64,000 bases of DNA from Caprella mutica (taxonomy: Eukaryota > Arthropoda > Malacostraca > Amphipoda > Caprellidae): NCBI GenBank assembly GCA_947561585.1, contig CANNZV010001636.1, positions 90,078 through 154,077 of the forward strand, in the 5' to 3' direction. Below the pieces are notes generated by a model. That model ran no database searches. It was not told where the DNA came from and saw only the letters and a list, made by a program, of their open reading frames with translations. Every line of letters starts with the position of its first letter. The first letter of the stretch is position 1. Shown piece by piece: positions 32 to 54,901 of this stretch. The position numbers and the translations under genes were made by a program.

Positions 32-1269
32 GCTCTGTTGAATCTGCATGGTGTTGCCTCCACTCACAACGATGCACATCTCACCAATTTCCTGGAGGGA
101 GAATTCTTGGAGGAACAAGTAGAAGCTATCAAAGAGTTGGCTGATATGATCACAAAATTGAAGAGAGCTGGACCAACTGGTGAGTCTTTTGACTTTACTT
201 CCCGGTCTTTTGACTTTACTTCCCGGTCTTTTGACTTTACTTCCCGGTCTTTTGACTTTACTTCCCGGTCTTTTGACTTTACTTCCCGGTCTTTTGACTT
301 TACTTCCCGGTCTTTTGACTTTACTTCCCGGTCTTTTGACTTTACTTCCCGGTCTTTTGACTTGACTTCCCGGTCATTTGACTTTACTTCCCGGTCATTT
401 GACTTTACTTCCCAGTCATTTGACTTTACTTCCTGGTCATTTGACTTGACTTCCTGGTCATTTGACTTGACTTCCCGGTCATTTGACTTGACTTCCCGGT
501 CATTTGACTTGACTTCCCGGTCATTTGACTTGACTTCCCGGTCATTTGACTTGACTTCCCGGTCATTTGACTTGACTTCCCGGTCATTTGACTTGACTTC
601 CCGGTCATTTGACTTGACTTCCCGGTCATTTGACTTGACTTGGCAGTCTTCTGAGTTGACTGGGCAGTCTTTTGACTTGACTGGGCAGTCTTTTGACTTG
701 ACTGGGCAGTCTTTTGACTTGACTGGGCAGTCTTTTGACTTGACTGGGCAGTCTTTTGACTTGACTGGGCAGTCTTTTGACTTGACTGGGCAGTCTTTTG
801 ACTTGACTGGGTAGTCTTTTGACTTGACTGGGTAGTCTTTTGACTTGACTGGGTAGTCTTTTGACTTGACTGGGCAGTCTTTTGACTTGATTTAGAAATT
901 CTGTTAACTTTTCTCACATTTCAAATAGTGTTGATATTTTCATCAGTCCGAAGCTTCGAATTATCGGACGATTTCACATTTTCGGTCATTTAGGAATATA
1001 GAATATTCATAATTTAAAAGTTATTTTCTTTGATGTCATTGATACTAGCTAATTAGCTAAATTATTAATATTATTTACTCCTATATGAACGAAGATATGA
1101 AACTGTCCGATAACTCTGGACTTACCCTACTACTCATTTTATTTATATAGTAAATAATAACTCTCTATGATAATAACCGTAACGTGAAATACTCTAAAAT
1201 ATTCATTCCTAATCTAATTTATATCTTTCAGGTCTTGGCGAGTACCTGTTCGACAAAGATCTCCAATAG
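32..1269 (+). CDS. Ferritin heavy-chain-type subunit, last two coding exons (partial)
   Basis: Ferritin subunits form the 24-mer iron-storage shell; heavy-type chains oxidise Fe(II). The exon at 32-179 follows a cccacag acceptor and reads [20 protein letters not shown] then [19 protein letters not shown], the helix C/D region of animal ferritins. Its donor GTGAGT is at 180. The second exon, 1232-1269, follows tctttcag; the split Gly codon joins and it reads [11 protein letters not shown] then TAG, the usual ferritin C-terminus. By human H numbering the ferroxidase Gln141 (EEQVE) and the channel Glu134 are present, but the channel Asp131 position is Asn. Earlier exons, any 5' iron-responsive element and any signal peptide lie off the left edge, so I cannot say whether the protein is cytosolic or secreted. 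The 1052-bp intron holds a 21-bp minisatellite and a MITE. Family call is firm. Confidence 0.92.
180..893 (+). repeat. 21-bp minisatellite starting at the ferritin donor
   Basis: About 34 copies of a 21-bp unit (core TCTTTTGACTTTACTTCCCG) begin directly after the GTGAG of the donor. The unit drifts along the array: TTTACTTCCCG at the left, TTGACTTCCCG in the middle and TTGACTGGGCAG at the right. Because 21 is a multiple of three and the frame has no stop until 812, the ferritin frame stays open through about 210 codons as a heptad SFDFTSR / SFDLTGQ. Confidence 0.95.
949..1128. mobile_element. Family A MITE in ferritin intron
   Basis: Inverted ends: left TCGAATTATCGGACG with CACATTTTCGGTCAT inside it; right AACTGTCCGATAACTC then GGACTTACCC followed by TA. 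Same family as the copy at 7118. The left end is eroded. Confidence 0.75.
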
Positions 1270-6734: not shown

Positions 6735-6980
6735 TTTTAGGGTTATAGACTATTTAAGACTATTTTAGACTATTTAAGACTACTTAAGACTATTTTAGAC
6801 TATTTAAGACTATTTTAGACTATTTAAGACTACTTAAGACTATTTTAGACTATTTAAGAATACTTAAGATTATTTTAGACTATTTAAGACTACTTAAGAC
6901 TATTTTAGACTATTTAAGACTACTTAAGACTATTTAAGACTATTTTAGACTATTTAAGACTACTTAAGACTATTACTATT
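6735..6980 (+). repeat. 10/20-bp minisatellite upstream of CIB start codon
   Basis: About 25 copies of a 10-bp unit with variants ACTATTTAAG, ACTACTTAAG and ACTATTTTAG, ordered mostly as pairs. The array ends about 20 bases before the ATG at 7001, so it occupies the position of the 5' UTR or proximal promoter. Confidence 0.92.
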
Positions 6981-7000: not shown

Positions 7001-10000
7001 ATGGGTAATAAAGTTGCAGCCTTCACCGAGGACCAAATAGAGGAATACCAGGTAAAATCAGCTCTATGCCATTGCCATGAATGTTGTTATTGAGGAGTAT
7101 TTGGCGCTATTTGATTAGGGTAAGTTCCGAGTTATCGAATGGTCCATATTGTCGATTACAAAAAAATAAGTAAATAATTAGGCATTTTAACGCGTTATTT
7201 TAATGGATACCAATCCAAGTAACGAGTTAATTATCTATTTTATATACTTTTTCTTATATGAACGGAAATGTGGAACCGTCCGATAACTCGAAACTTACCC
7301 TATACCCTAAAATAAAATTATGGTTGGGCCATAGAAGATTAACTGCATGTGACCCCTCTTAATCTTCTATGGCCCCACCTTAATTTTTGTCATTGGGAAT
7401 AGCTAACTAATTAATGAATGTACTTAAAATAAATGATTGTGACAATAATAGTGTGCATGATACTAATTCAAATAGATAAATAATGAAAGAATAAATAAAA
7501 ATTTAATTCCTTAATATTTAATGAGAGAAATGTTTGAAATGATTTCTATTTTCCTCAGATATGCACTTACCTCAGCAGAAAAAATATACTAAGGTAAATA
7601 TGAGGTAAAAAGGTGAATATAAGGTAAAAAGGTGAATAAAAGGTAAAAAGGTGAATAAAAGGTAAAAAGGTGAATAAAAGGTAAAAAGGTGAATAAAAGG
7701 TAAAAAGGTGAATAAAAGGTAAAATGGCGAATAAAAGGTAAAAAGGTGAATAAAAGGTGAAAAGGTGAATAAAAGGTAGAATGGTGAATATAAGGTAAAA
7801 AGGTGAATATAAGGTAAAAAGGTGAATAAAAGGTAAAAAGGTGATTAAAAGGTAAAAAGGTGATTAAAAGGTAAAAAGGTGATTAAAAGGTAAAAAGGTG
7901 ATTAAAAGGTAAAAAGGTGAATAAAAGGTAAAAAGGTGAATAAAAGGTAAAAAGGTGAATAAAAGGTAAAAAGGTGAATATATGGTAAAAAGGTGAATAA
8001 AAGGTAAAAAGGTGAATAAAAGGTAAAAAGGTGAATAAAAGGTAAAAAGGTGAATATATGGTAAAAAGGTGAATAAAGGGTAAATATAATTAGGTAAATC
8101 AATATTATAAATAAAAGAAAACCTAATAATACGCTTGGCAAGCAGCTGATAGCATGGATAGGAAAATATTCTGATATCAGTTCAATAAATAGTTTCAATA
8201 ACTAAATTAAACATTATTTTATTCAGTTGAAAATATTGGATAATAATTATTACATAAATTGAACTACCATCAAAGTCAATAAAATTGATATTTAAAATGT
8301 CATCATTAGTACAAACATCTTTCTAGACTTTAATACTGAAAATAAATTTTACTTTTAGAGTATAGTAACTATACTTTATAGTATAGAGTATAGCAACTAT
8401 ACTTTATAGTATAGAGTATAGTAACTATACTTTATAGTATAGAGTATAGTAACTATACTTTATAGTATAGAGTATAGTAACTATACATTATAGTATAGAG
8501 TATAGAAACTATACTTTATAGTATAGAGTATAGCAACTATACTTTATAGTATAGAGTATAGTAACTATACTTTATAGTATAGAGTATAGTAACTATACAT
8601 TATAGTATAGAGTATAGAAACTATACTTTATAGTATAGAGTATAGCAACTATACTTTATAGTATAGAGTATAGTAACTATACTTTATAGTATAGAGTATA
8701 GTAACTATACTTTATAGTATAGAGTATAGTAACTATACATTATAGTATAGAGTATAGAAACTATACTTTATAGTGTAGAGTATAGTAACTATACTTTATA
8801 GTGTAGAGTATAGCAACTATACTTTATAGTGTAGAGTATAGTAACTATACTTTATAGTGTAGAGTATAGTTACTATACTTTATAGTGTAGAGTATAGTAA
8901 CTATACTTTATAGTGTAGAGTATAGTAACTATACTTTATAGTATAGAGTATAGTAACTATACATTATAGTGTAGAGTATAGTAACTATACTTCATAGTAT
9001 AGAGTATAGTAGTAACTATACTTCATAGTATAGAGTATAGTAGTAACTATACTTTATAGTATAGAGTATAGTAGTAACTATACTTATAGTACCTATAGTT
9101 AGAGTAAGTAACTAAAACCGAATATTTTTTTCAATCCGAATAATCCTCCTTTTCATAAATATATTTTTTTTCCCCCAAACCAAATAAAATAAAATAATTT
9201 ATTTTTCCAGCAGCTAACGAGAAGATAACGAACTTTTATTGTGAAAACATTCTTTGAAACAACGAATTTACTAACTCTCACAAAAAATAAAATGTTTGTA
9301 TTTATTAATTTCCAACAATAAATGTTTCTATTTTTTGAGCCAGAGTGTTACCAGATAGGTTCAAATTCTTTACTTCATTTTAGAAGGAATATTTGTTTTC
9401 TTCCATGTAATCTAATTTGTTGATTGCAAACAGTGTGCAACAATTAACATTTGTAAAAAAATGAAATAAAATCACTGAATAAGAAATTTAAATAAATTAA
9501 ATTTATACCAACAGGACTTCCATAAATAAAATTAAAAAATATTTATAACAATGTATATATTATTTCGGGCCACAGTTTCGGGCAAGATCCGAATTACCGG
9601 ACTTTTCTACATTTTCGATATCATTAAAAATATATAATAATTATTATTTAAGGTTTACTATTATTTAACAGTCCGATAATTCAGTATTTACCCCCACCTT
9701 CTACCCCTCTGGTTCAGGGCCCACAGGGTGTTCAGGCGGGTGACAGAAGGAAGGGCCCCGGAAGTTATGACCCGTAATGCATCAGCTACCATAACAGCAC
9801 CTTACGGGGCACTGGACACCATGGGGGCAATAAAGGTGAATAAGGTGAATGGTGAATGGTAAGGTGAATGGTGAATGGTTAGGTGAATGGTAAGGTCAAT
9901 GGTAAGGTCAATGGTGAATGGTGAATGGTAAGGTCAATGGTGAATGGTAAGGTCAATGGTAAGGACAATGATAAGGTGAATGGTAAGGACAATGATAAGG

Positions 10001-13000
10001 TGAATGGTGAGGTCAATGGTGAGGGGTAAGGTCAATGGTGAATGGTAAGGTGAATGGTAAGGACAATGATAAGGTGAATGGTGAGGTGAATGGTGGGGGG
10101 TAAGGTCAATGATAAGGTGAATGGTGAATGAAGGTGAATGGTGAATGAAGGTGAATGGTGAATGATAAGGTGAATGGTGAATGAATGTCAAAAAATTGAA
10201 TAAAAGTAAAAAAAATAAATGAAATTCGAATCGTGTCTGAATTCCTTTTATTATACCATTTCACTATTACTTTTAGCAGTAAAGGCTTAATATTATTTTT
10301 AGTTCAGTAGAATAGCTTTCAAATGTTAAATCAATTAGTAACTTTAGCAATTACAACTGCTGGAATGAACCTAAAAAGGCTCTAATAATGACCGAAAATA
10401 CGGCCAGAGATTTTACCGTTAGATATATAGTGCGAGTGAGAGGGGAATGTAAAGTGGCCTATTTGGAGGGAAAGTCATTAGTGCTCTACTTACAAAATGG
10501 CTTTGATTGAAACTATGGACTTCAAGATCCTATCGAATATTTGTGAAATTAATGATAGAGACTTCTTAATTCTATAATAAGTAACCACCGACTTCCGTTA
10601 CAATTTTAGTAGTAATTTAATAGGACTCACAAAGTTCCTAGTTGAAGCATCTTACTAGTATACTCTATCGTAAAGTTCCTAGTTGAAAGCATCTGACTAA
10701 TACTCTCTATCGTAAAGTTCCTAGTTGAAAGCATCTTAGTGATACTCTCTATCGTAAAGTTCCTAGTTGAAAGCATCTTAGTGATACTCTCTATCGTAAA
10801 GTTCCTAGTTGAAAGCATCTTACTAATACTCTCTATCGTAAAGTTCCTAGTTGAAAGCATCTTAGTGATACTCTCTATCGTAAAGTTCCTAGTTGAAAGC
10901 ATCTTAGTGATACTCTCTATCGTGAAGTTCCTAGTTGAAAGCATCTTACTAATACACTCTATCGTAAAGTTCCTAGTTGAAAGCATCTTAGTGATACTCT
11001 CTATCGTAAAGTTCCTAGTTGAAAGCATCTTACTAATACACTCTATCGTAAAGTTCCTAGTTTAAAGCATCTTACTAATACTCTCTATCGTAAAATTCCT
11101 AGTTGAAAGCATCTTACTAATACACTCTATCGTAAAGTTCCTAGTTGAAAGCATCTTAGTGATACTCTCTATCGTAAAGTTCCTAGTTGAAAGCATCTTA
11201 CTAATACACTCTATCGTAAAGTTCCTAGTTGAAAGCATCTTAGTGATACTCTCTATCGTAAAGTTCCTAGTTGAAAGCATCTTACCAATACTCTCTATCG
11301 TAAAGTTCCTAGTTGAAAGCATCTTACTAATACACTCTATCGTAAAGTTCCTAGTTGAAAGCATCTTACTACATTCTATCGTAAAGTTCCTAGTTGAAAG
11401 CATCTTACTAATATACTCTCTATCGTAAAGTTCCTAGTTGAAAGCATCTTACTAATACACTCTATCGTAAAGTTCCTAGTTGAAAGCATCTTAGTGATAC
11501 TCTCTATCGTAAAGTTCCTAGTTAAAAGCATCTTACTAATGCACTCTATCGTAAAGTTCCTAGTTGAAAGCATCTTACTACATTCTATCGTAAAGTTCCT
11601 AGTTGAAAGCATCTTACTAATATACTCTCTATCGTAAAGTTCCTAGTTGAAAGCATCTTAGTGATACTCTCTATCGTAAAGTTCCTAGTTAAAAGCATCT
11701 TACTAATGCACTCTATCGTAAAGTTCCTAGTTGAAAGCATCTTACTAATACTCTCTATCGTAAAGTTCCTAGTTGAAAGCATCTTACTAATACTCTCTAT
11801 CGTAAAGTTCCTAGTTGAAAGCATCTTACTAATACTCTCTATCGTAAAGTTCCTAGTTGAAAGCATCTTACTAATAGACTCTATCGTAAAGTTCCTAGTT
11901 GAAAGCATCTTACTAATACTCTCTATCGTAAAGTTCCTAGTTGAAAGCATCTTACTAATACACTCTATCGTAAAGTTCCTAGTTGAAAGCATCTTACTAA
12001 TACACTCTATCGTAAAGTTCCTAGTTGAAAGCATCTTACTAATACTCTCTATCGTAAAGTTCCTAGTTGAAAGCATCTTACTAATATACTCTATTCCCCC
12101 AAACCACAAATCTGTGACTGAAATATTTTGTCTCAATGCAGGAGAATCCATTTCGAAGACGAATTTGTGAGATTTTCTCGGAAGACAAGTCTGGCTGTCT
12201 GAATTTTGATCAGTTCTTGGATATGTTCTCAGTGTTTTCGGAGGCTGCCCCCAGGGAAATGAAGGTAATCTACGCCTTCAGGATTTACGGTGAGACTTCA
12301 GTCCTAAGTGAATTACCGTTATTGGCTTTTCTCTGATAAATAGTATTTACTTATTGAACACTTACATTAGATTTAACTGAATATATATTTAATTCATAAT
12401 TAAAATTAGAGAAGGAGGAATTAACCATATTTATTTTATTTTAATAAAATGACAAAGAATAAGTTTTTATATTTTACGATGATTTTAATTAATAATATTT
12501 ATTTTTATTCTCCAATAATTGCAGTTAGGTTAGGTTCTGAGTCATCGAATGGTTTCACATTTTCGATCAAAAACCTCAAATTTCAAGTAGCATCCATGAT
12601 ACTTGCAGGTATCATGGATACCAATAGAATTTAGAAGCTTTTTCTTTTGTATGATCGAAAATGTGGAACCGTTCAATAACTCAGGACTTAACCCAATAGT
12701 GATATTTTCGACAGATTTTGACAATGACGGCTTTCTGGGACGAGAAGATTTACTCTCCGCCACACAGCATTTGACGCATAATTTACTGACGCCTGAGGAG
12801 TGTAACAGCATCGTCAGTAAGGTGAGTGCATCGTCAGTAAGGTGAGTGTATCGTCAGTAAGGTGAGTGCATCGTCAGTAAGGTGAGTGCATCGTCAGTAA
12901 GGTGAGTGCATCGTCAGTAAGGTGAGTGTATCGTCAGTAAGGTGAGTGCATCGTCAGTAAGGTGAGTGCATCGTCAGTAAGGTGAGTGTATCGTCAGTAA

Positions 13001-15796
13001 GGTGAGTGTATCGTCAGTAAGGTGAGTGTATCGTCAGTAAGGTGAGTGTATCGTCAGTAAGGTGAGTGTATCGTCAGTAAGGTGAGTGCATCGTCAGTAA
13101 GGTGAGTGTATCGTCAGTAAGGTGAGTGCATCGTCAGTAAGGTGAGTGTATCGTCAGTAAGGTGAGTGTATCGTCAGTAAGGTGAGTGTATCGTCAGTAA
13201 GGTGAGTGCATCGTCAGTAAGGTGAGTGCATCGTCAGTAAGGTGAGTGCATCGTCAGTAAGGTGAGTGCATCGTCAGTAAGGTGAGTGCATCGTCAGTAA
13301 GGTGAGTGCATCGTCAGTAAGGTGAGTGCATCGTCAGTAAGGTGAGTGTATCGTCAGTAAGGTGAGTGTATCGTCAGTAAGGTGAGTGTATCGTCAGTAA
13401 GGTGAGTGTATCGTCAGTAAGGTGAGTGTATCGTCAGTAAGGTGAGTGTATCGTCAGTAAGGTGAGTGCATCGTCAGTAAGGTGAGTGTATCGTCAGTAA
13501 GGTGAGTGTATCGTCAGTAAGGTGAGTGTATCGTCAGTAAGGTGAGTGTATCGTCAGTAAGGTGAGTGCATCGTCAGTAAGGTGAGTGTATCGTCAGTAA
13601 GGTGAGTGTATCGTCAGTAAGGTGAGTGTATCGTCAGTAAGGTGAGTGTATCGTCAGTAAGGTGAGTGTATCGTCAGTAAAGTGAGTGCATCGTCAGTAA
13701 AGTGAGTTAAATGGAATCATTAAATTTATACAGTTTAATTAAAAAATGAAATAGGTAGTGGAAGAAGTCTTTCGACAAAAGCAAAAAGAATGGATTTTAT
13801 TTAATCGGTCATCCTTTGCTGTTGAACTATTTCTGTAGTTCTTAACTAGGTTCTGGCAATATTTCACAAAAAAATCCCACTCTTCAGGGCAATAATTATT
13901 GCAGGTTTGAGGGGGCTTGCTCTGATCTGTCTCTTCAAAATTTATCACTAACTTTTAATAGGTTTTTAAAACATCAATTTCCATATATTCGATTCATTTC
14001 TCAGTTGCCTTCGCTGTGTGTTTTGAATCAATATTTTCTTGGTACACTAACATCATCAGAGAATTACATTTTCTCCAGACTCTTACAGAAAACTGTCCAA
14101 AATATTCTTGTATTTGGCTCTATTAATTCTTCCATTGGTTGTTACCATCTCCCGTGAGAATCGTGTCTCTAATAATCTAATTTTGGCTTCTAGATGTGCT
14201 CCCTAGTTCTTCCTAGTATGATCTAATTGTATTTTATTTTGGTAATACAAGGAATACTGTCCAAATACTTCTTTCACTACCTATTTCCAAAATGTAGTAT
14301 AAATTGTATGTTTTTAGTTAATGTTAAGATTTAACTCTTTCAATCTATTTATATCTTGAAACTGTATTATTTTATAATTTTGTTTGGTAAGGTAAAAATG
14401 TTGAAAAATGAACATTTTAATTCTTTTCAAATAATTATTTCTCGTCACTGTACATATTAATGTTCCAATATTGTCAATTTTAAAAGCACATTTTAATTTT
14501 CGGGTAAATGTATTCAGATGAAATTGCGTGTTACGTTATTCAAAAATTATTACGTTACTCTACAATCGTTACTCTACAATAGTTACTTTACAATAGTTAC
14601 TTTACAATAGTTACTCTACAATCGTTACTCTACAATAGTTACTTTACAATAGTTACTTTACAATAGTTACTTTACAATAGTTACTCTACAATCGTTACTC
14701 TACAATAGTTACTTTACAATAGTTACTCTACAATAGTTACTTTACAATAGTTACTTTACAATAGTTACTTTACAATAGTTACTTTACAATAGTTACTTTA
14801 CAATAGTTACTTTACAATAATTACTTTACAATAGTTACTTTACAATAGTTACTTTACAATAGTTACTCTACAATAGTTACTTTACAATAGTTACTTTACA
14901 ATAGTTACTCTACAATAGTTACTTTACAATCGTTACTTTACAATAGTTACTTTACAATCGTTACTTTACAATAGTTACTCTACAATAGTTACTTAACAAT
15001 AGTTACTTTACAATAGTTACTTTACAATAGTTACTTTACAATAGTTACTTTACAATAGTTACTTTACAATAGTTACTTTACAATAGTTACTTTACAATAG
15101 TTACTCTACAATAGTTACTTTACAATCGTTACTTTACAATAGTTACTTTACAATAGTTACTTTACAATAATTACTTTACAATAGTTACTTTACAATAGTT
15201 ACTCTGCAATAGTTACTTTACAATAGTTACTTTACAATAGTTACTTTACAATAGTTACTTTACAATAGTTACTCTACAATAGTTACTTTACAATAGTTAC
15301 TTTACAATAGTTACTTTACAATAGTTACTTTACAATAGTTACTTTACAATAATTACTCTACAATAGTTACTTTACAATCGTTACTTTACAATCGTTACTT
15401 TACAATCGTTACTTTACAATCGTTACTTTACAATAGTTACTTTACAATCGTTACTTTACAATCGTTACTTTACAATCGTTACTTTACAATAGTTACTTTA
15501 CAATCGTTACTCTATAATCGTTACTCTACAATCGTTACTCTACAATCGTTACTCTACAATCGTTACTATACAAACGTTACTCTACAATCGTTACTCTACA
15601 ATCGTTACTCTACAATAGTTACTTTACAATCGTTACTCTACAATCGTTACTTTACAATCGTCACGTTTCTTTATTTCCCCAGGTGCTGGAAGAGTGTGAC
15701 ATTGACTGCGATGACAGGCTGTCACAGTCGGAGTTTTCGCTGGCAGTGCTCAAGTGTCCTTATTTCCTGCAGAATTTCAAACTCGCTGCGGTTTGA
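7001..15796 (+). CDS. Calcium- and integrin-binding (CIB) family EF-hand protein, CIB2-like
   Basis: CIB proteins are small myristoylated Ca2+/Mg2+ sensors that bind integrin tails and other partners. Exon 7001-7051 reads [17 protein letters not shown] with a good start context (CCCCAAAATGG); Gly2 suggests N-myristoylation. Its donor is CAG|GTAAAA. Exon 12142-12289 reads [18 protein letters not shown] then [20 protein letters not shown], then [11 protein letters not shown]. Exon 12715-12821 carries the third EF loop [12 protein letters not shown] and ends NSIVSK. Exon 15683-15796 carries the fourth loop [12 protein letters not shown] and ends in TGA. All phases match. ENPFRRR and APREMK point to the CIB2 side of the family. 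Two oddities stand out. Loop 4 has Asp instead of the usual Gly at position 6. The segment that normally follows EYQ (a phenylalanine-rich helix to PELK, about 45 residues) was not found on either strand between 7052 and 12141. Every intron holds minisatellites or a MITE. Confidence 0.88.
7118..7300. mobile_element. Family A MITE, intact ends, TA duplication
   Basis: Starts GGGTAAGTTCCGAGTTATCG and ends CGATAACTCGAAACTTACCC, flanked by TA on both sides. 183 bp, no ORF. It lies in the long CIB intron and is the clearest copy for defining the family boundaries. Confidence 0.9.
7318..7382. repeat. GGCCATAGAAGA motif, inverted pair
   Basis: GGGCCATAGAAGATTAACTG is followed after a few bases by CTCTTAATCTTCTATGGCCC, making a short palindrome. 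This is a single-copy form of the motif amplified at 19880, 40010 and 51285. Confidence 0.75.
7592..8085 (+). repeat. 18-bp minisatellite in CIB intron
   Basis: About 27 copies of AAAAGGTGAATAAAAGGT with variants GTGATTAAAAGG and GTGAATATAAGG. Variants are clustered, which shows local duplication blocks. Confidence 0.92.
8355..9105 (+). repeat. 28-bp self-complementary minisatellite
   Basis: About 27 copies of a unit built from AGAGTATAGTAACTATAC and TTTATAGTAT. TATAGTAACTATA and ACTATAnnnTATAGT pair with themselves, so the array can fold as hairpins. Blocks ending in TAGTGTAG replace TAGTATAG at the right, and a few units gain an extra TAG. Confidence 0.92.
9110..9580. other. Intron sequence without recognised content
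   Basis: AT-rich. I searched it on both strands for the missing CIB segment (phenylalanine-rich helix, PELK before a phase-0 donor) and found none. Confidence 0.4.
9586..9693. mobile_element. Family A MITE, short diverged copy
   Basis: Left arm GATCCGAATTACCGGAC with TCTACATTTTCGATAT; right arm ACAGTCCGATAATTCAG then TATTTACCCCC. Only about 108 bp, so the interior has been lost. Confidence 0.65.
9700..9832. other. GC-rich island of unknown origin
   Basis: A stretch clearly richer in G and C than its surroundings (for example GGAAGGGCCCCGGAAG and CACCTTACGGGGCACTGG). No open frame resembles CIB. It may be a fragment of a retroelement or a foreign repeat; I cannot identify it. Confidence 0.3.
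9836..10190 (+). repeat. Irregular GGTGAATGGT minisatellite
   Basis: Mixed units of 9 to 21 bp built from AAGGTGAATGGTGAATGG, AAGGTCAATGG and AAGGACAATGAT. It shares the AAGGTGAAT core with the 18-bp array at 7592. Confidence 0.85.
10200..10620. other. Intron sequence without recognised content
   Basis: Unique sequence of moderate AT content between two arrays. No CIB-like frame, splice-flanked ORF or transposon end recognised. Confidence 0.35.
10627..12095 (+). repeat. 42-bp minisatellite ending before a CIB acceptor
   Basis: About 35 copies of a unit containing TATCGTAAAGTTCCTAGTTG and AAAGCATCTTACTAATA. Variants are TTAGTGATA and TTACTAATACA; a few short units read TTACTACATT. The unit is 14 codons, so long frames are open on both strands; these are by-products. 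The array ends 47 bases before the exon at 12142, so the branch region of that intron is at the array edge. Confidence 0.95.
12524..12695. mobile_element. Family A MITE filling a CIB intron
   Basis: Left end GGTTAGGTTCTGAGTC with TTTCACATTTTCGATCA; centre GGTATCATGGATACC; right end GTTCAATAACTCAGGAC then TTAACCC. It occupies about 40 percent of the 425-bp intron and ends about 19 bases before the exon at 12715, so the acceptor region is partly made by the MITE flank. Confidence 0.8.
12806..13710 (+). repeat. 20-bp array of splice donors, 45 copies
   Basis: The unit GTGAGTGCATCGTCAGTAAG is the last 14 bases of the CIB exon (GCATCGTCAGTAAG) plus the GTGAGT donor. GTGAGT occurs every 20 bases exactly, from 12822 to 13702, 45 times, with no indel. 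Only one position varies commonly (GTGAGTGCA or GTGAGTGTA); the last two copies have AAAGTGAGT. Read in the exon frame, TGA appears in the second unit, so only the first donor gives a normal protein. Confidence 0.97.
13739..13948 (-). CDS. Minus-strand ORF in CIB intron, unassigned
   Basis: About 69 codons with a coding-like composition, including [18 protein letters not shown] and [12 protein letters not shown] do not recognise it. There is no clear donor at its end, and it may be a chance frame or an exon of an unknown antisense gene or transposon. Confidence 0.15.
   Translation of the reverse strand: MINFEETDQSKPPQTCNNYCPEEWDFFVKYCQNLVKNYRNSSTAKDDRLNKIHSFCFCRKTSSTTYFIF
13950..14548. other. 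Intron sequence, nothing recognised
   Basis: Unique AT-rich sequence between the donor array and the 14-bp array. No MITE ends or ORF seen. Confidence 0.35.
14552..15663 (+). repeat. 14-bp minisatellite running up to a CIB acceptor
   Basis: About 79 copies of GTTACTTTACAATA with CTCTACAATC and similar variants. It stops about 20 bases before the acceptor at 15681-15682; the pyrimidine tract TTTCTTTATTTCCCCAG follows directly. Confidence 0.95.
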
Positions 15797-15861
15797 ATTC
15801 TAGTTTAACCATTTTCGAACAGTTTTTCAAATTTCTTTGGTTTAACCATGTGCGACCGAAT

Positions 15862-16395
15862 TGATACAATATCTATTTACAGTCAATACAAATAATATTC
15901 CACTAGGGATGTACTCTTACGGTGAAGAACATTCATACAATATCTATTTACAGTCAATACAAATAATATTCCACTAGGGATGAACTCTTACGGTGAAGAA
16001 CATTCATACAATATCTATTTACAGTCAATACAAATAATATTCCACTAGGGATGAACTCTTACGGTGAAGAACATTCATACGATATCTATTTACAGTCAAT
16101 ACAAATAATATTCCACTAGGGATGAACTCTTACGGTGAAGAACATTCATACAATATCTATTTACAGTCAATACAAATAATATTCCACTAGGGATGAACTC
16201 TTACGGTGAAGAACATTCATACAATGTCTATTTACAGTCAATACAAATAATATTCCACTAGGGATGAACTCTTACGGTGAAGAACATTCATACAATATCT
16301 ATTTACAGTCAATACAAATAATATTCCACTAGGGATGAACTCTTACGGTGAAGAACATTCATACAATATCTATTTGCAGTCAATACAAATAATAT
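15862..16395 (+). repeat. 71-bp tandem repeat, about 7.5 copies
   Basis: The unit runs from TACAATATCTATTTACAGTC through AATATTCCACTAGGGATG to TCTTACGGTGAAGAACATTC. Copies are almost identical, so amplification is recent. It starts 66 bases after the CIB stop codon and would lie in the 3' UTR if the poly(A) signal at 16669 is used. Confidence 0.95.
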
Positions 16396-16411
16396 TCCAA
16401 AAGGAATTTTC

Positions 16412-19879: not shown

Positions 19880-20225
19880 TTAATCTTCTATGGCCCTCCA
19901 TAACTTCCTCTCTCAATCTTCTATGGCCCCACCATAACTTTCGCTCTCTACCTTAATTCTATGGCCCCACCATAACTTTCGCTCTCTACCTTAATTCTAT
20001 GGCCCCACCATAACTTTATTTCTCAATCTTCCATGGGCCCATCATAATTTTCTCTCTCTACCTTCTATGGCCCCACCATAATTTTCTCTCTCCATCTTCT
20101 ATGGCCCCACCATAACTTTCTCTCTCATTCCTCATGGCCCTATCATAACTTCCTCTCTCCATCTTCTATGACCCCACCATAACTTCCTCTCTCAATCTTC
20201 TATGGCCCCACCATAATTTCCTTTC
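19880..20225 (-). repeat. GGCCATAGAAGA array, minus orientation
   Basis: About 10 degenerate copies of TCTATGGCCCCACCATAAC with a TTTCTCTCTCAATCT spacer. This is the reverse complement of the 34-bp unit at 40010 and 51285. Copies differ much more here, so this array is older. Confidence 0.9.
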
Positions 20226-27379: not shown

Positions 27380-28890
27380 ATTAGTTCGTATCTTCAGCAG
27401 CAAATTTGTATGGAGGTAAAACATGGAGAGGATATTTGGTAGGGATATTTCTAGACAGTAGCTTATTGATGTTGTTGTATGCATGTAATATTATAATTAT
27501 AATATCATAAAAAAGTATACTTAATATACAGTAATAATATACTTAATATATAATATATCAAGTAAGCCATGATGTGCACTATAGTATGCTAGTGTATTTT
27601 CCCTAAATAGTGTTTACTTTGGTGTAACTTAAGTGTCTTTGATTTGTTTTTACAATTGAATAAAGATAATAAAATTATAATATCATATCAATATATTCTC
27701 GCACGTAACATGGTTATAGTCTTCTTGTTAAAATCTATCCTAATAAGTCCCGTCGTATATTCATTTATTTGGTGTCCGCTTATTAGGAATGATAGGAGAA
27801 AAATACTAAAGCCACTTAATGCAACCAAACTTATAATTAAATACCTTTGCAGATCCATGAATTATTTTCCAAACTATCAATCTCAATCGTATACCGAAAA
27901 TAAATCTTATTTCTTCTTTATTTTCTTTAATTTCATTGCCGAAGATTCTCTTCTACAAACGTAATTAGTCCAAAAGTCCACGGAATTGAAACTCAGACTT
28001 CGCTAGAATCTAATTCCGACTTTTTCTTGCTGTTCAAAATGACAGAAAGAAAGAACGGATAACTCATTGTAGCAAGATAATTGATTGCTAGGTATTCCTT
28101 CAGTCTCTAATTTGTTACAGAATAAACAGAGGCAACATGTTAATTAATTAGGTAATTTGTATACAGTCACTTTGTCAACCAGTTTTAATTTGAAACAAAA
28201 AAGAGGAACTTGCGTTTAAACGATAAAATTGTAGAAGAATTTTTAATTGATTTAATGGAAAATAACGTCTTAAAAAATTGTAGAAAATGTCATCCAAAAT
28301 AGTTACCTAATATTCTAAACGTTAGTCGTTTAGTTAGTCTATAATATTCTAACTAATTACCCATTAGTTATGTAAATAATCCTTTCGTCTTGGCAGATGT
28401 TAATTATCACCCATTAGTCAAAGAAAATAAGAAGATGTAACAAGAATAATAATAAAGTCAGAAAATTATAATCAGCAGCCTTTCATGTATCCATAATTAT
28501 GAAAATTGTTCAATACCACATATTTTTCTATAATATTGTTTCTGGCGGCTACTGTGACCAGTCATTTAGATTGACCGGAATTTATTTATTAATTTATTTT
28601 TTTAATGGAAAAATATCATATTAGAAAAATCTTCATTCTAAATAACTTAATTTAAAATATATATCGTGTGAGTATCTTAATATGATCTTCGACGAATAAA
28701 TTTAATTAATATTACGTGTATTAAATTGTAGGCCGAGCTTAATCTTTATCTTAATCAATCTTATTTGCAGATTGCTTTTGCAATCTATTAAATAAATATT
28801 AACTTAAAAGCCAATACATTATAATAAATATTCCACAAATACATTCAACTCTCCAAATTATTTTTCCTCCCAACAAACATGTCCTCTTCA
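27380..28890. other. Intergenic or intronic stretch, nothing recognised
   Basis: AT-rich unique sequence. The frame at 27644-27964 has no similarity I recognise and low-complexity composition. A pyrimidine-rich tract near 28858 may belong to the acceptor of the next ORF. Confidence 0.3.
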
Positions 28891-28897
28891 TTTGAAG

Positions 28898-29422
28898 AAG
28901 GTGAATCTGGACTCCAATTGCTCAGATCCGTCAATAGATCATCAGCATCTCATTCAGAAGCACCAAGAACACCAAAAAGCTCTATTAGAGCAGCACAAGA
29001 CCAAGAAAGCCATCTTGCCTCCGACTCATTATCCCACTTTCCACAGACGGTCTTCGTCTCATCGAATTTATGGAGATACACTCACCAAATCAACAGTTAA
29101 AAGTGCCGAGTCTTCTGACGATTTGGCAGCAAATCATTTCGAATTGTCTCGGACTAAGTTTAAATCAAGCAGTCAGTTGAGCTCTGGGATTCAGTCGCAT
29201 TTTTCGAATTTACAGTCGAAGAATGGGTCTCTCCGACATTTGGACTCCGACTCAACCTTTGGCCAATCTTCGGAAGGACTTCGGGGCAGTAAATTGAATT
29301 TAGGAGCAACAGATTCTACTTTGCGGGACAGAATTAAACATCTTTCAGCCTCTCCATCTTCCGAAGAGACCAAAAAAGAATTAATAAATAGAAGATCTTC
29401 CAGGGAAAGACTTAATAAATAG
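28898..29422 (+). CDS. Serine-rich exon-like ORF, unassigned
   Basis: About 174 codons, no Met, preceded by a pyrimidine tract (TTATTTTTCCTCCC) and TTTGAAG acceptor-like sites at 28897 and 28900, so it reads as an internal or terminal exon. It contains DSNCSDPSIDHQHLIQKHQE, HRRSSSHRIYGDTLTKST and RDRIKHLSASPSSEETKKEL. Composition (Ser, Lys, His, Gln) suggests a disordered, phosphorylatable region such as a cytosolic tail. The balanced composition and lack of repeats across most of its length argue for real coding. It ends in TAG inside the first unit of a 31-bp minisatellite. I do not recognise the family. Confidence 0.5.
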   Translation, partial: KVNLDSNCSDPSIDHQHLIQKHQEHQKALLEQHKTKKAILPPTHYPTFHRRSSSHRIYGDTLTKSTVKSAESSDDLAANHFELSRTKFKSSSQLSSGIQSHFSNLQSKNGSLRHLDSDSTFGQSSEGLRGSKLNLGATDSTLRDRIKHLSASPSSEETKKELINRRSSRERLNK

Positions 29423-29750
29423 AAGATCTTCGAAGGTAAGACTTAATAAATAGAAGATCTTCGAAGGTAAGACTTAATAAATAGAAGATTTTCGAGGGAA
29501 AGACTTAAGAAATAGAAGATCTTCCAGGGCAAGACTTAATAAATAGAAGATCTTCCAGGGAAAGACTTAATAAATAGAAGATCTTCGAGGGCAAGACTTA
29601 ATTAATAGAAGATCTTCGAGGGCAAGACTTAATAAATAGAAGATCTTCGAAGGTAAGACTTAATAAATAGAAGATCTTCCAGGGCAAGACTTAATAAATA
29701 GAAGATCTTCCAGGGAAAGACTTAATAAATAGTAGATCTTCCAGATAAAG
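29388..29750 (+). repeat. 31-bp minisatellite over the ORF end
   Basis: About 11 copies of a unit with AATAGAAGATCTTC and GAAGGTAAGACTTAATAA. Several copies (29434, 29465 and 29651 area) contain AAGGTAAGA, a good donor; others read AGGGAAAGA or AGGGCAAGA and lack GT. The unit is not a multiple of three, so frames shift from copy to copy. Confidence 0.93.
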
Positions 29751-29759
29751 TCTTTCTAA

Positions 29760-32500
29760 ATAAATGAAGTATAATCTCCGAGATAATAAAACGTACCCAC
29801 CGATAGAGTTAAATCGACAAAACTTCGATGATTTCGAATGAAATCCGATTAAACCGCAGAAATGTTCGCGATTGAACTCAGGATTGAATATTTTATAATG
29901 ACTAGTTTAACGTATTTTGTTTTCGTTCATTTCTGCTATGTTCTCCAAGTAAACTTTGACATTTACCATCAGCTTTTTATTGTCCATCCAAAACAGAACT
30001 CAAGAGTTTGATATTTAAATTCATATTATGTTCTGGAAACCTAGATCTATAAAATACAGTCTGAGTCCAAGACACTCAGGAATATGAAGGACGAAAAGCG
30101 AGACACTTCCACATATCTGCATCATTTTATAATTCTGAAACACTTTCGTATTTCAAGAGCCGCAAAGTGCTTTTAGAAATTAATAATTGATGCACTTCGG
30201 TGTAATGCCTTTATCAAAAAGTTTATCGGGTAAACGTAAAACAAACACCTGAGTGTCTAATATTTTTTCCGCGTACCTATTCAATTTCTTTCATTTTCCT
30301 ATCGGACTTTCGATCAGCTTTCATTTTCGACCAGGAATGAATTCCTCCGCAAAATAGTGACCGAAAAGAAACGGACAGGAGACTCTTTGAATCCTATCTC
30401 AAAATTGGCTATGGGACGACAATGTTGTTGTCATACGAAGTTCTTCAATAGAACTTAAAATTAGAAAAAAATAGATTTATTAATTTATATTAATTGTGTT
30501 ATATCTCTAGAGATATCATATGCTGAGAGGCCTGGATGAATCTTTACAATAAATATCTCAATAACTTTATATTTATTTTCTTTTTCCTTTAAAATAGTAC
30601 CACATAACTACCAATGATAGTACAGCAGATATATATGTGAGGAATAGAAATAGCACCAACACTTCTGCAAAAGACTGCATTTATTTACATTGCAGCAGTT
30701 CTTATTATCATCTACTGACTTAGTACAGACAATAATTATATACTATAGAGCAACATACAAATAAAATACCAAGGCAATAAAACAATCTCAAAGGAGATAA
30801 AATCCATTATAAATGGGGTTCAGATAAAAGAAATTATATAATTATTCTATAAAGTATGTATATTGATATATAGGATATATTGTTATATTCTCAATATGTT
30901 ATTTTAGTAAATTCATTTAAAGTGCTAAATTAAATTAAATTTTCTTATATTCATAATATAAACTTTTATCTAAGATAATTATTATATAAGTTGAAACTTT
31001 AATTTTATAATTATTACAAATATATAAGTACCTATGCAATATATTAGTTATTATAGGTAAAAATTAACTATATTAATTGTTGAAATGTTCAGAAAATATA
31101 GCAGTTCCTCGAATTGCCGGAGGTGAAATATTCACGGCGTTACTTTGGCTGCTATTTACTGGCGGAGGAATATGCCAAATTATTAGCAGTTTATGAGAGC
31201 ATCAGTTGACTGTAGTGGCGCATATCTTAGACATTAGTCTGGCGGGATTTGGCAATAATTTGTCCTTATTATCTTGGAGGTTTAGATAAAAAATATCATT
31301 ATAAGGTAAGATATGATCAATTTGCTAAAAATAGAAAAAAAAAAAATATTTTGTACCGTAAAGGTGTACTTTAGCTTCGATGTTATAAATTTTAAATTAA
31401 ATAGAAATACTTGTCCTGACTTATTTATTATCATGATTTCTCTTTAATTTTGCATAAAAATATAACTCGATTATCGTTTCAAACTGTGCCTCGAATTATT
31501 GTAGGTCATATTATTAATTATTATATAATCAAACAATGGTTCAAATCTTCTTTTTTGTTCATATCTTCTTTATATCTCCTGAAACCGAGAGGAGTATGCA
31601 ATAAGACTGCTAAATTGTAACTAATCACTGAGTTATTTTCATACACACCACATTTTTTAAATATAATTGTTAATATTTAATGAAAATTACAGAAAGAGAA
31701 GAATAGCTTCGACGATCTCAGTCGAAGCTTAAGTGTACCTTTACCTTCGTTACAATAAATTTTCAAGATTAAAAGTATTGTATCCATATGACGACTATTA
31801 TTACCAGCCATTTAGTTCGACTTTATTTATTTTATTCTTTAACTTCAAAAGTTAATGAGAATGAAAATATAAAGTAAATGAAATATTCGAAGTATATACC
31901 GTAGAGTTTCAAAGTGAAATTTCAATTTTTTCTAATTTTTTTTGATAGTGATACAAAATAAAACAAATTCGGTATCGATTGAAAATAAATTAAGTGTTTA
32001 TGTTTATGGATAGAGTGATCTACAAATTTTCAATTATTATACTTAATTCTATTATATTTCATTACCATTAATTTAACATTAATGATTGACATCTAATTTG
32101 ATTGTAATATTGCAATGCGATTGAAAACGTTCTTTTTTTTATTTTTATGCATCTGTTATTTGTACACACTATTTTGAATTACCGGGAAAATGTTTTTTCA
32201 TGGTCTAAGATATAATAATAATATTTTAATAAAAAATTAAATTTGAGAGACTTATGCATTTCACGTTGACCCTATTAGTTTTGTTATGAAAACGTGACAT
32301 TTAAGTACATGAACTATAAATGTGATTTTCTTATGCATTTCAATAGGTTGAAAATGTTTCCGAGTGAGTAATCAATGCATTTGTGAGTACTTTGTGTAGT
32401 AGAGTTAGTTTACTTTGGAAGTGAACAACGTAGTGTTTACATATTTTGCTGTTTACAGCAAGCGAATTAATGCTTGTATTTTATGATTTTCGCTTTCTAA
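29760..32500. other. Long AT-rich stretch
   Basis: Holds the 136-bp dispersed repeat at 30285 and a less AT-rich patch near 31095-31260 with two short overlapping open frames (one reads VPRIAGGEIFTALLWLLFTG) that I cannot assign. Otherwise unique AT-rich sequence without recognised genes. Confidence 0.3.
30285..30419 (+). repeat. 136-bp dispersed repeat, copy 1
   Basis: From TTTCTTTCATTTTCCTATCG to TTGGCTATGGGACGA. It matches 52258-52393 with three visible mismatches, and the flanks differ. The part ATCGGACtTTCGatcag...CATTTTCGA faintly resembles family A arms. Confidence 0.92.
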
Positions 32501-39966: not shown

Positions 39967-40009
39967 GTTAGTTGATGGAAATAAATAGTGATTTAGAATA
40001 AGAATTTTG

Positions 40010-41110
40010 AAAGTTATGGTGGGGCCATAGAAGACTAAGAAGGAAAGTTTTGGTAGGGCCATAGAAGACTAAGAAGGAAAGTTATGGTGGGGCCATAGAA
40101 GACTAAGAAGGAAAGTTATGGTGGGGCCATAGAAGACTAAGAAGAAAAGTTATGGTGGGGCCATAGAAGACTAAGAAGGAAAGTTATGGTGGGGCCATAG
40201 AAGACTAAGAAGGAAAGTTATGGTGGGGCCATAGAAGACTAAGAAGGAAAGTTTTGGTAGGGCCATAGAAGACTAAGAAGGAAAGTTATGGTGGGGCCAT
40301 AGAAGACTAAGAAGGAAAGTTATGGTGGGGCCATAGAAGACTAAGAAGGAAAGTTTTGGTAGGGCCATAGAAGACTAAGAAGGAAAGTTATGGTGGGGCC
40401 ATAGAAGACTAAGAAGGAAAGTTATGGTGGGGCCATAGAAGACTAAGAAGAAAAGTTATGGTGGGGCCATAGAAGACTAAGAAGGAAAGTTATGGTGGGG
40501 CCATAGAAGACTAAGAAGGAAAGTTATGGTGGGGCCATAGAAGACTAAGAAGGAAAGTTTTGGTAGGGCCATAGAAGACTAAGAAGGAAAGTTATGGTGG
40601 GGCCATAGAAGACTAAGAAGGAAAGTTATGGTGGGGCCATAGAAGACTAAGAAGGAAAGTTATGGTGGGGCCATAGAAGACTAAGAAGGAAAGTTATGGT
40701 GGGGCCATAGAAGACTAAGAAGAAAAGTTATGGTGGGGCCATAGAAGACTAAGAAGGAAAGTTATGGTGGGGCCATAGAAGACTAAGAAGGAAAGTTATG
40801 GTGGGGCCATAGAAGACTAAGAAGGAAAGTTATGGTGGGGCCATAGAAGACTAAGAAGAAAAGTTATGGTGGGGCCATAGAAGACTAAGAAGGAAAGTTA
40901 TGGTGGGGCCATAGAAGACTAAGAAGGAAAGTTATGGTGGGGCCATAGAAGACTAAGAAGAAAAGTTATGGTGGGGCCATAGAAGACTAAGAAGGAAAGT
41001 TATGGTGGGGCCATAGAAGACTAAGAAGGAAAGTTATGGTGGGGCCATAGAAGACTAAGAAGGAAAGTTTTGGTAGGGCCATAGAAGACTAAGAAGGAAA
41101 GTTATGGTGA
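40010..41110 (+). repeat. 34-bp GGCCATAGAAGA array, about 32 copies
   Basis: The unit is GAAAGTTATGGTGGGGCCAT plus AGAAGACTAAGAAG. Variants (GTTTTGGTAGGGCC, AAGAAGAAAAG) recur in blocks. It ends at a GC-rich non-repeat patch (41108-41170) followed by one more motif copy GGCCATAGAAGATTAAGAGG. Confidence 0.97.
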
Positions 41111-41179
41111 GGCCCTGTGTCCCCCGGTGAAGGTTCACGTCACGGCTGAGGACTCTGCCTCTGGCTGGTGTCGAAGGCC

Positions 41180-49229: not shown

Positions 49230-49345
49230 TATAGAAGTTACATCTCCTAAACTTCTATGGCCCCACCATAACTTTCTCTCTTGATCTGCCATGGCCCCAC
49301 CCTAACTTTTTCTTTTAATCTTCTATGGTCCCACCCTAAATCTAT
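49230..49345 (-). repeat. GGCCATAGAAGA motif, about 4 copies
   Basis: One + copy (GGGCCATAGAAGATATAGAA) followed by three minus copies (CTTCTATGGCCCCACCATAA). A small mixed-orientation cluster. Confidence 0.85.
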
Positions 49346-51284: not shown

Positions 51285-52090
51285 TGGTGGGGAAATAGAA
51301 GATTAAGAGGGGGTAAACCCAGAGATAACTTATGGTGGGCCATAGAAAATTTTAGTAGTGTGGATTGTACTTATCTATCCAGAGGGAAAGTTATGGTGGG
51401 GCCTTAGAAGATTGAGAGAGAAAGTTATGGTGGGGCCATAGAAGATTTAGAAAAAAGTTATGGTGGGGACATAGAACATTAAAAGAGAAAGTTATGGTGG
51501 GACCATAGAAGATTAAGAAAGAAAGTTATGGTGGGGACATAGAACATTAAGAGAAAAAGTTATGGTGGGGCCATAGAAGATTAAGAGAGAAAGTTATGGT
51601 GGGGACATAGAAGATTAAGAAAGAAAGTTATGGTGGGGCCATAGAAGATTAAGAAAGAAAGTTATGGTGGGGACATAGAACATTAAGAGAAAATGTTATG
51701 GTGGGGCCATAGAAGATTAAGAAAGAAAGTTATGGTGGGGCCATAGAAGATTAAGAAAGAAAGTTATGGTGGGGACATAGAACATTAAGAGAAAATGTTA
51801 TGGTGGGGCCATAGAAGATTAAGAAAGAAAGTTATGGTGGGGACATAGAACATTAAGAGAAAAAGTTATGGTGGGGCCATAGAAGATTAAGAGAGAAAGT
51901 TATGGTGGGGACATAGAAGATTAAGAAAGAAAGTTATGGTGGGGCCATAGAAGATTAAGAAAGAAAGTTATGGTGGGGACATAGAACATTAAGAGAAAAA
52001 GTTATGGTGGGACCATAGAAGATTAAGAAAGAAAGTTATGGTGGGGACATAGAAGATTAAGAGAGAACGTTATGGTGGGGCCATACAAGA
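51285..52090 (+). repeat. 34-bp GGCCATAGAAGA array, second large copy
   Basis: About 23 copies of GAAAGTTATGGTGGGGCCAT plus AGAAGATTAAGA(A/G)A, alternating with GGGGACATAGAACATTAAG units. The same motif as 40010 but with GATTAAG instead of GACTAAG, so each array was homogenised separately. Confidence 0.96.
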
Positions 52091-52257
52091 GTAATTAAGA
52101 TTGAGTAGGTTTATACTCATCCTGTACGATTATATGTGGATAAAAATACCATTAAATCAGTTATAGAATCAATTTCAATGAACGTTTATTGTTTCAGTTC
52201 AAATTCTGACATTTCTCATTAATATTTTTTAAAGCACGCATTCCTGCACTCTGCCAC

Positions 52258-54337: not shown

Positions 54338-54901
54338 GTGAATATTCTCCGAGAAGAAACTCTGCTGTACGAGATATTGAGTGTCTCGAACAGAGGAAAG
54401 GATGCTAAAGTACTTGCCAAGAATGACCTACACGAGATATTGAGTGTCTCGTACAGAGGAAAGGAAGCTAAAGTACTTGCCAAGAATGACCTACACGAGA
54501 TATTGAGTGTCTCGAATAGAGGAAAGGATGCTAAAGTACTTACCAAGAATGACCTACACGAGATATCGAGTGTCTCGAACAGAGGAAAGGATGCTAAAGT
54601 ACTTACCAAGAATGACCTACACGAGATATTGAGTGTCTCGAATAGAGGAAAGGATGCTAAAGTACTTACCAAGAATGACCTACACGAGATATCGAGTGTC
54701 TCGAACAGAGGAAAGGATGCTAAAGTACTTACCAAGAATGACCTACACGAGATATTGAGTGTCTCGAATAGAGGAAAGGATGCTAAAGTACTTACCAAGA
54801 ATGACCTACACGAGATATTGAATGTCCCGTACAGAGGAAAGGATGCTAAAGTACTTGCCAAGAACGACCTACACGAGATATTGAGTGTCTCGAATATGTG
54901 A
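54338..54901 (+). repeat. 63-bp minisatellite with open frames on both strands
   Basis: About nine copies of a 63-bp (21-codon) unit containing GAGATATTGAGTGTCTCGAA, AGAGGAAAGGATGCTAAAG and AAGAATGACCTACACGAG. On + it reads EILSVSNRGKDAKVLAKNDL; the opposite strand is open too. CGAGATATTGAGTGTCTCG is a near-palindrome. I treat it as non-coding, but the intact frame means a repeat protein cannot be excluded. Confidence 0.9.

What the first reader, a model, noticed from the sequence alone, without database searches (positions are those of the whole stretch)
12806..13710. Forty-five tandem 5' splice sites at the end of a CIB exon
The exon-intron junction itself is the repeat unit. GTGAGT recurs every 20 bases, 45 times, without an indel, and each copy is preceded by the last 14 exon bases. 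The spliceosome must choose the first donor, because use of later ones adds 20n bases and meets TGA in the second unit. Such an array could buffer donor mutation, sponge U1 snRNP, or make non-productive isoforms as a way to tune CIB level. The C/T marking at one position could report how the array grew.
Basis: partly seen in the sequence, partly recalled or inferred. Interest (0 to 1): 0.85.

Follow-up and report, generated by a model that had tools for sequence, protein, structure and literature searches.

The report
Repeated splice-donor array in amphipod gene
In a small crustacean, the signal that marks the end of an exon in a calcium-binding-protein gene has been copied head to tail 45 times, making a natural test bed for how cells choose between many near-identical splice sites.

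Summary
At 12808-13707 a 20-base unit, made of the last 14 bases of CIB exon 5 and the first 6 intron bases, recurs 45 times without an indel. A second contig, probably the other haplotype, has the same array with 35 units. The gene is an intact six-exon CIB of 190 aa, closest to amphipods. It is not general: 0 of 56 myosin and 0 of 26 kinesin exons had an array at the donor. Two of nine donor-motif arrays elsewhere whose 5' edge I read abut exon-like frames. Best reading: hypervariable minisatellites seeded by tandem duplication across exon-intron junctions in a repeat-rich genome; the first copy makes CIB, later copies are tolerated decoys. The human IFI6 (6-16) minisatellite is the precedent. 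Whether junctions are preferred seeding sites, or array length tunes CIB output, is open; no RNA data were available.

The parts
12808..13707 (+). 45 x 20-bp array (GCATCGTCAGTAAGGTGAGT): 14 exon bases + 6 intron bases of CIB exon 5/intron 5
   Evidence: 35 units on contig C1602
12715..12821 (+). CIB exon 5 (EF-hand 3 region), last 14 bases are the first part of unit 1
12822..12827 (+). first (exon-adjacent) 5' splice site GTGAGT, the only one that keeps the CIB frame
12843..12845 (+). in-frame TGA met if donor 3 or a later one is used
15683..15796 (+). CIB exon 6 coding part with stop codon; acceptor ccccag before it
7001..7051 (+). CIB exon 1 (ATG), donor CAG|GTAAAA, no array at the donor
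7559..7593 (+). CIB exon 2, donor AAG|GTAAAT
7591..8084 (+). 19-bp array (AAGGTGAATAAAAGGTAAA, 26 copies) that starts at the exon 2 donor; the consensus unit has two donor-like sites
9718..9835 (+). CIB exon 3, donor AAG|GTGAAT
9836..10183 (+). 12/19-bp array (TAAGGTGAATGGTGAATGG) that starts at the exon 3 donor
12142..12289 (+). CIB exon 4, donor ACG|GTGAGA, no array at the donor
10631..12094 (+). 42-bp array ending 47 b before the exon 4 acceptor; unit holds TTACTAATA (branch-site-like, recalled consensus)
14554..15658 (+). 14-bp array (GTTACTTTACAATA, 79 copies) ending 24 b before exon 6
32..179 (+). ferritin penultimate exon (..RAGPT(G)), donor CTG|GTGAGT
180..890 (+). 21-bp array (GTCTTTTGACTTGACTTCCCG, 34 copies) that starts at the ferritin donor; later copies have lost the donor

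Best explanation
It is a hypervariable minisatellite that began as a tandem duplication of 20 bases straddling the exon 5/intron 5 junction of a CIB gene (14 exon + 6 intron bases), in an amphipod genome region crowded with minisatellites. Expansion by unit and block duplication pushed the rest of the intron away, so the exon still ends in unit 1. Shown: the anatomy, the intact gene, the same array with another copy number on a second contig, the local excess of such arrays at donors, and the coding outcome of each donor. Inferred: the first copy is the working donor for CIB; the other copies are near-neutral decoys; leaky use of them gives a frameshifted protein (donor 2) or early-stop RNA (donors 3-45, with the stop more than 50 nt before the last junction from donor 5 on).
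For: Unit 1 is coding sequence of a conserved protein. 45 against 35 units on two contigs with the same array edges; CIB exons 1, 3, 4 and 6 identical on both, exon 2 with 1 and exon 5 with 3 changes. Exact 10-unit block duplication in the second contig and a longest shared run of only 6 units. About 30% of the window is arrays, and copy number differs between the contigs at the arrays compared, for example 79 against 162 and 7.6 against 31.6. Donor loss in downstream ferritin copies, and no bias against donor changes in the CIB array, fit tolerance rather than upkeep. None of 82 surveyed myosin and kinesin exons has an array at the donor itself, so such arrays are occasional, not required.
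Against: 4 of 6 donors in this window carry such arrays. Random placement of the 30 arrays never gave 4 in 200,000 trials and gave 3 in 6 trials; with exons avoided, 3 occurred in 3 of 20,000 (the window of -16 to +10 bases was set after seeing the data, and one of the 4 is the given finding). Two of 26 kinesin exons have an array that starts 24 and 31 b after the donor. Chance seeding alone therefore does not explain this locus. A paper notes that how the intron-proximal of two comparable donors is favoured is not known (PMC6002489, Discussion passage); such a preference would predict use of later, non-productive copies. The two most intron-proximal copies in the window are, however, weak (-6.8 and -5.7 kcal/mol).
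Confidence: 0.6

Rival explanations
1. Splice junctions are preferred birth places of minisatellites in this genome (mutational bias: for example the G-rich, C-poor donor strand opens into R-loops during transcription, or AGGT-type microhomology starts slippage), so donor arrays, and branch-site arrays before acceptors, are a recurrent class.
For: 4 of 6 donors in the window. Tandem AGGTRAGT triplets 18,122 matches genome-wide against 7,454 for the pattern read backwards (match counts, several per array). Two further arrays from that list begin at exon-like frames (C29, C27:567k). Two of 26 kinesin exons have an array 24 and 31 b after the donor. G exceeds C in five of the six donor-array units listed and three have no C. 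Arrays just before acceptors of CIB exons 4 and 6 and of a kinesin exon seen in two copies.
Against: 0 of 56 myosin and 0 of 26 kinesin exons have an array at the donor itself. Array starts number 0.26 per kb in the myosin blocks (17 in 65.3 kb) and 0.47 per kb in the window (30 in 64 kb), so chance alone would put about 1% of donors at an array start; a genome-wide excess is not shown. The ferritin unit is C-rich. Six of nine donor-motif arrays read elsewhere were not at exons.
Confidence: 0.22
2. The array is a functional dial: extra donors compete, shift part of the CIB transcripts to frameshifted or early-stop forms, and array length sets CIB output.
For: 43 of 45 copies are strong U1 matches (-11.8 or -12.6 kcal/mol; first percentile of 920 background GTs -8.3). 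Donors 3-45 give early stops. Array length differs between contigs.
Against: No RNA. No excess conservation of donor bases. The ferritin sister array has lost its extra donors. Exons 2 and 3 have weaker arrays with the same potential, so nothing singles out exon 5.
Confidence: 0.1
3. Remnant of intron birth by tandem duplication of an AGGT-containing segment (Rogers model).
For: The unit holds AGGT; the model is described in PMC4974935 (passages), including 24-bp multi-copy cases in fission yeast.
Against: The acceptor used to complete CIB lies about 2 kb beyond the array at 15682, not in a unit; the intron holds a second unrelated array. Intron age was not testable.
Confidence: 0.04
4. Assembly artefact.
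For: Long perfect arrays are hard to assemble; read data were not available.
Against: Two contigs carry it with different lengths and different variant orders.
Confidence: 0.04

Closest known systems
Human IFI6 (G1P3, 6-16) minisatellite (Turri, Cuin and Porter 1995, seen only as a cited title in PMC2572611 and PMC4526556 and one introduction sentence of the latter)
   Same: A minisatellite that offers multiple splice donor sites; that introduction sentence says two downstream repeat units are used as donors, giving three mRNA species.
   Different: There (recalled) the unit is 12 nt and keeps the frame; here it is 20 nt and breaks it, includes 14 coding bases, has 45/35 copies, and the same gene has two more donor arrays. 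Use of downstream donors is unknown here.
Internal tandem repeats at exon-intron boundaries in human segmental duplications (PMC2812944, abstract and passages)
   Same: Minisatellites of on average 30-bp units, some at exon-intron boundaries where they alter splicing.
   Different: On average 4 repeats in recently duplicated paralogs, with novel introns formed; here dozens of copies in an ordinary gene with the old intron kept.
[quoted passage not shown]
   Same: Tandem copies of a segment holding AGGT.
   Different: No sign that a new intron was made; the acceptor is outside the array.

Membership tests
Minisatellite | head-to-tail units of about 10-100 bp | tested here: met
   20-bp unit, 44.9 copies, 98% matches, 0% indels
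Minisatellite | copy-number variability between alleles | tested here: inconclusive
   45 against 35 units on two collinear contigs; that they are alleles rather than paralogs is inferred
IFI6-type splice-donor minisatellite | array includes a real exon-intron junction and its units a 5' splice site | tested here: met
   AGGTGAGT intact in 43 of 45 and 34 of 35 units; junction inferred from protein homology, not from RNA
IFI6-type splice-donor minisatellite | downstream copies used as donors in transcripts | not testable with these tools
   no RNA data for this species
IFI6-type splice-donor minisatellite | unit length keeps the reading frame (recalled for IFI6; a difference rather than a defining trait) | tested here: not met
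   20 nt; donor 2 gives a frameshifted 199-aa protein, donors 3-45 a stop
CIB (calcium and integrin-binding) family | full-length homology with about 190 residues and EF-hands | tested here: met
   190 aa; 78% to Trinorchestia, 75% to Hyalella proteins; PDB calmyrin 7e-49, CIB3 1.2e-44; EF-hand_7 2.3e-15
Rogers-type intron gain | splice from GT of one copy to AG of another copy | tested here: not met
   the acceptor that completes CIB is ccccag at 15682, about 2 kb past the array
Rogers-type intron gain | intron absent from relatives | not testable with these tools
   no genomes of related animals were searchable

The most novel reading that the evidence does not exclude
In this amphipod lineage splice signals themselves are preferred nucleation sites for minisatellites: donor arrays grow out of exon ends and branch-site arrays in front of acceptors, in many genes. 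At CIB three of five introns start with such an array, each allele has its own lengths, and array length changes the share of productive CIB mRNA.
Probability: 0.12. Interest if true: 0.85.

Novelty: new variant of a known kind. Interest (0 to 1): 0.55.

Why it matters
It is a natural experiment on an open question: how one of several comparable 5' splice sites is chosen (stated as not known in the Discussion of PMC6002489). Here 43 strong, near-identical sites and two weak ones stand 20 nt apart and only the intron-distal one makes protein, with a 35-copy version in the same assembly. Counting junctions per unit would read out the choice rule in a living animal. If splice junctions are favoured seeding sites, it would also tie minisatellite birth to transcription or splicing.

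Tried and rejected
Considered and rejected: (1) universal rule that exons end in arrays. PF00063 gave 105 exon matches; I carried 61 rows into the count and 56 lay inside the 15 fetched blocks (65.3 kb, 4.5% tandem repeat); with arrays of 2.5 or more copies, 0 of 56 had an array start from -60 to +150 of the match end and one had an array end 81 b before the match. An earlier version had minus-strand loci in the wrong orientation and was replaced. PF00225 gave 96 matches; I fetched 20 short stretches with 26 exons (12.3 kb). By the same criterion 6 of 26 have some array start within -60 to +150 of the match end; the nearest two start 24 and 31 b after the donor, the other four 116-149 b after the match end; none is at the donor itself. 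On the acceptor side: L083 and its near-identical copy L084 (array ends 14 b before the exon) and L092 (48 b). C1840/C2332 and the C560 copies are probably haplotype or duplicate pairs, so these counts are not all independent.

(2) All genome-wide AGGTRAGT arrays are exon ends: one search counted 18,122 matches and listed only the first places, 11 distinct arrays on contigs C5-C29 by my count. I read the 5' edge of nine: two at exon-like frames (C29:70k, C27:567k), one unclear (C5:1252k, array right after a frame ending in TGA), six not at exons (C5:762k, C14, C15, three related copies on C25); C27:712k was fetched but its edge was not reached, and C22 (tetranucleotide) was not fetched. The two exon calls rest on acceptor + open frame + donor only; Pfam gave no family for either, and PDB gave nothing for the C27 piece and one chance-level hit (E 2.1) for the C29 piece. 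The receptor-like look of the C27 exon is recall.

(3) Exon boundaries first taken a few bases off were corrected. (4) Pfam on ten window pieces gave only ferritin and a weak EF-hand hit. (5) Ferritin upstream exons were sought by eye in the preceding 10 kb and not recognised. (6) Paper searches: (amphipod + genome assembly + minisatellite) gave 0 papers; I claim no more than that about what is in print. (7) The scrambled-motif control that I planned besides the backwards pattern did not complete.

Full report
Observation. The array is as described: 45 GTGAGT at 20-base spacing from 12822 to 13702, each behind G[C/T]ATCGTCAGTAAG (last base A in units 44 and 45), without an indel (Tandem Repeats Finder 44.9 copies, 98% matches). 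Unit 1 is exon sequence: AGC ATC GTC AGT AAG reads S-I-V-S-K in a CIB protein. The array ends in AAAGTGAGT|TAAATGG here and in AAGGTGAGT|TAAATGG on the second contig, so the likely starting sequence was one junction, GCATCGTCAGTAAG|GTGAGT followed by TAAATGG.

Gene and species. Six exons (7001-7051, 7559-7593, 9718-9835, 12142-12289, 12715-12821, 15683-15796 with the stop) join into an intact 190-aa CIB. Its best database relatives are amphipods, Trinorchestia longiramus 78% and Hyalella azteca 75%. The window is part of a 903-Mb assembly in 7200 contigs. The join at exon 5/6 is K|V, phase 0, and aligns without a gap to CIB3. Trinorchestia has ..NSIVKK|VLEE where this gene has ..NSIVSK|VLEE. 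Exon limits are inferred from homology and splice consensus, not from RNA.

Second copy. Contig C1602 holds the locus in reverse, collinear with the window. Exons 1, 3, 4 and 6 are identical; exon 2 has 1 change of 35 (CTAAG to CTGAG next to the donor), exon 5 has 3 of 107, none in the last 14 bases, and the ferritin exon is 99.3% identical. The array edges are the same, but the interior differs: 35 units, four main unit types, an exact duplication of a 10-unit block, and a longest shared run of 6 units with the window. Copy numbers differ at the arrays compared (exon 2: 26 against 10; exon 3: 19 against 41; ferritin 34 against 23; 42-bp 35 against 51; 14-bp 79 against 162; 71-bp 7.6 against 31.6). 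I read C1602 as the other haplotype; a recent duplication is not excluded.

Sister arrays. The 19-bp array after exon 2 and the 12/19-bp array after exon 3 begin at the donors AAG|GTAAAT and AAG|GTGAAT, and the 21-bp array after the ferritin exon begins at CTG|GTGAGT; on C1602 the ferritin array begins about 20 b after the donor. The ferritin join RAGPTG|LGEYLFDKDLQ matches ferritins in the PDB (8zn8, 1.6e-23). So 4 of the 6 donors in the window (CIB exons 2, 3, 5, ferritin; not CIB exons 1 and 4) stand in or at the first unit of an array. Shuffling the 30 arrays over the window gave 3 donors in 6 of 200,000 trials and never 4; with exons avoided, 3 in 3 of 20,000 accepted of 233,849. The tolerance was chosen after the fact and one of the four is the finding itself, so the numbers are a guide.

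Is it general? In 56 myosin-head exons (15 blocks, 65.3 kb, 4.5% tandem repeat, 17 arrays) none had an array near the donor. In 26 kinesin exons none had one at the donor, but two start 24 and 31 b after it and four more 116-149 b after the match end. Genome-wide, three AGGTRAGT with gaps of 2-32 b matched 7,841 + 10,281 times against 3,459 + 3,995 for the pattern read backwards. Counts are per match, so long arrays weigh more. Of nine distinct arrays from that list whose 5' edge I read, two begin at an exon-like frame with acceptor and donor: C29:70k, where 15 exon bases before the donor lie in the 27-bp array, and C27:567k, where a 23-bp array starts at the donor; one was unclear and six, three of them related copies, were not at exons. 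Such arrays therefore recur, but the rate at ordinary donors (0 of 82) is compatible with chance placement at about 1%.

Consequences for splicing (inferred from sequence). 43 copies pair with U1 at -11.8 or -12.6 kcal/mol and the last two at -6.8 and -5.7, against -8.3 for the first percentile of 920 GT sites. Only donor 1 gives CIB. Donor 2 gives 199 aa with a foreign C-terminus; donors 3-45 end at TGA 12843-12845 after 160 aa, the stop lying 56 nt before the last junction for donor 5 and 856 nt for donor 45. At exon 3, donor 2 adds 9 bases and keeps frame (VNK, 193 aa), while the five further ones tested give 76-95 aa; the six later donors tested at exon 2 stop after 29 aa. Nothing here shows which donors are used. 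Exon definition (recalled) favours the first; a paper states that how the intron-proximal of two comparable sites is favoured is not known (PMC6002489, Discussion passage), and such a preference would favour later copies.

Function. The donor octamer is intact in 43 of 45 and 34 of 35 units, but the rest of the unit is about as uniform (variable positions 1, 2, 6, 12 outside, 14 and 16 inside), so uniformity reflects recent copying and not proven upkeep. In ferritin the 38 downstream GT sites score -1.1 to -6.0 against -9.2 for the first. I therefore favour a tolerated minisatellite. Copy-number tuning of CIB remains possible and testable.

Known kinds. A minisatellite giving multiple splice donors was reported for human 6-16/IFI6 in 1995; I saw its title in two reference lists and one sentence on three mRNA species from two downstream units (the paper itself is not held). 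Minisatellites at exon-intron boundaries that alter splicing are described in human duplicated genes (PMC2812944, abstract and passages). This case differs in copy number, in the frame-breaking 20-b unit with 14 coding bases, and in several introns of one gene being affected. Of two talitrid genome papers I saw passages only; Trinorchestia is given as 6.18% tandem repeats (PMC7062882), against about 30% of this window.

Noticed in passing
window 15683-15796: CIB EF-hand 4 loop reads DIDCDDRLSQSE where the four crustacean relatives read have DCDGRLS or DCDGKLS, with G at the sixth loop position; calcium binding there may be altered.
   Followed up: no
window 10631-12094 and 14554-15658; loci L083, L084: Arrays that end 14-47 b before acceptors; the 42-bp and kinesin units hold CTAAT, branch-site-like by recalled consensus. 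A possible mirror of the donor arrays.
   Followed up: partly
window 6747-6974 and 15860-16399: Two more arrays hug the CIB coding region: one ends 26 b before the ATG, one starts 63 b after the stop codon; the second has 7.6 against 31.6 copies on the two contigs.
   Followed up: partly
window 28808-29419 with array 29375-29762: A 204-aa open frame of protein-like composition runs into a 31-bp array; some units read TTCGAAG|GTAAGA. Possibly one more junction array; no Pfam match.
   Followed up: partly
window 40009-41114, 51381-52094, 19882-20220, 49243-49339: A 34-bp unit (GTTATGGTGGGGCCATAGAAGATTA...) recurs in several separate arrays and as scattered fragments (about 5080, 7330), also in locus C1789: a dispersed repeat family, unlike the locus-specific donor arrays.
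   Followed up: no
window 54369-54894: 63-bp array open in frame on the + strand (DLHEILSVSNRGKDAKVLTKN repeated); may be coding.
   Followed up: no
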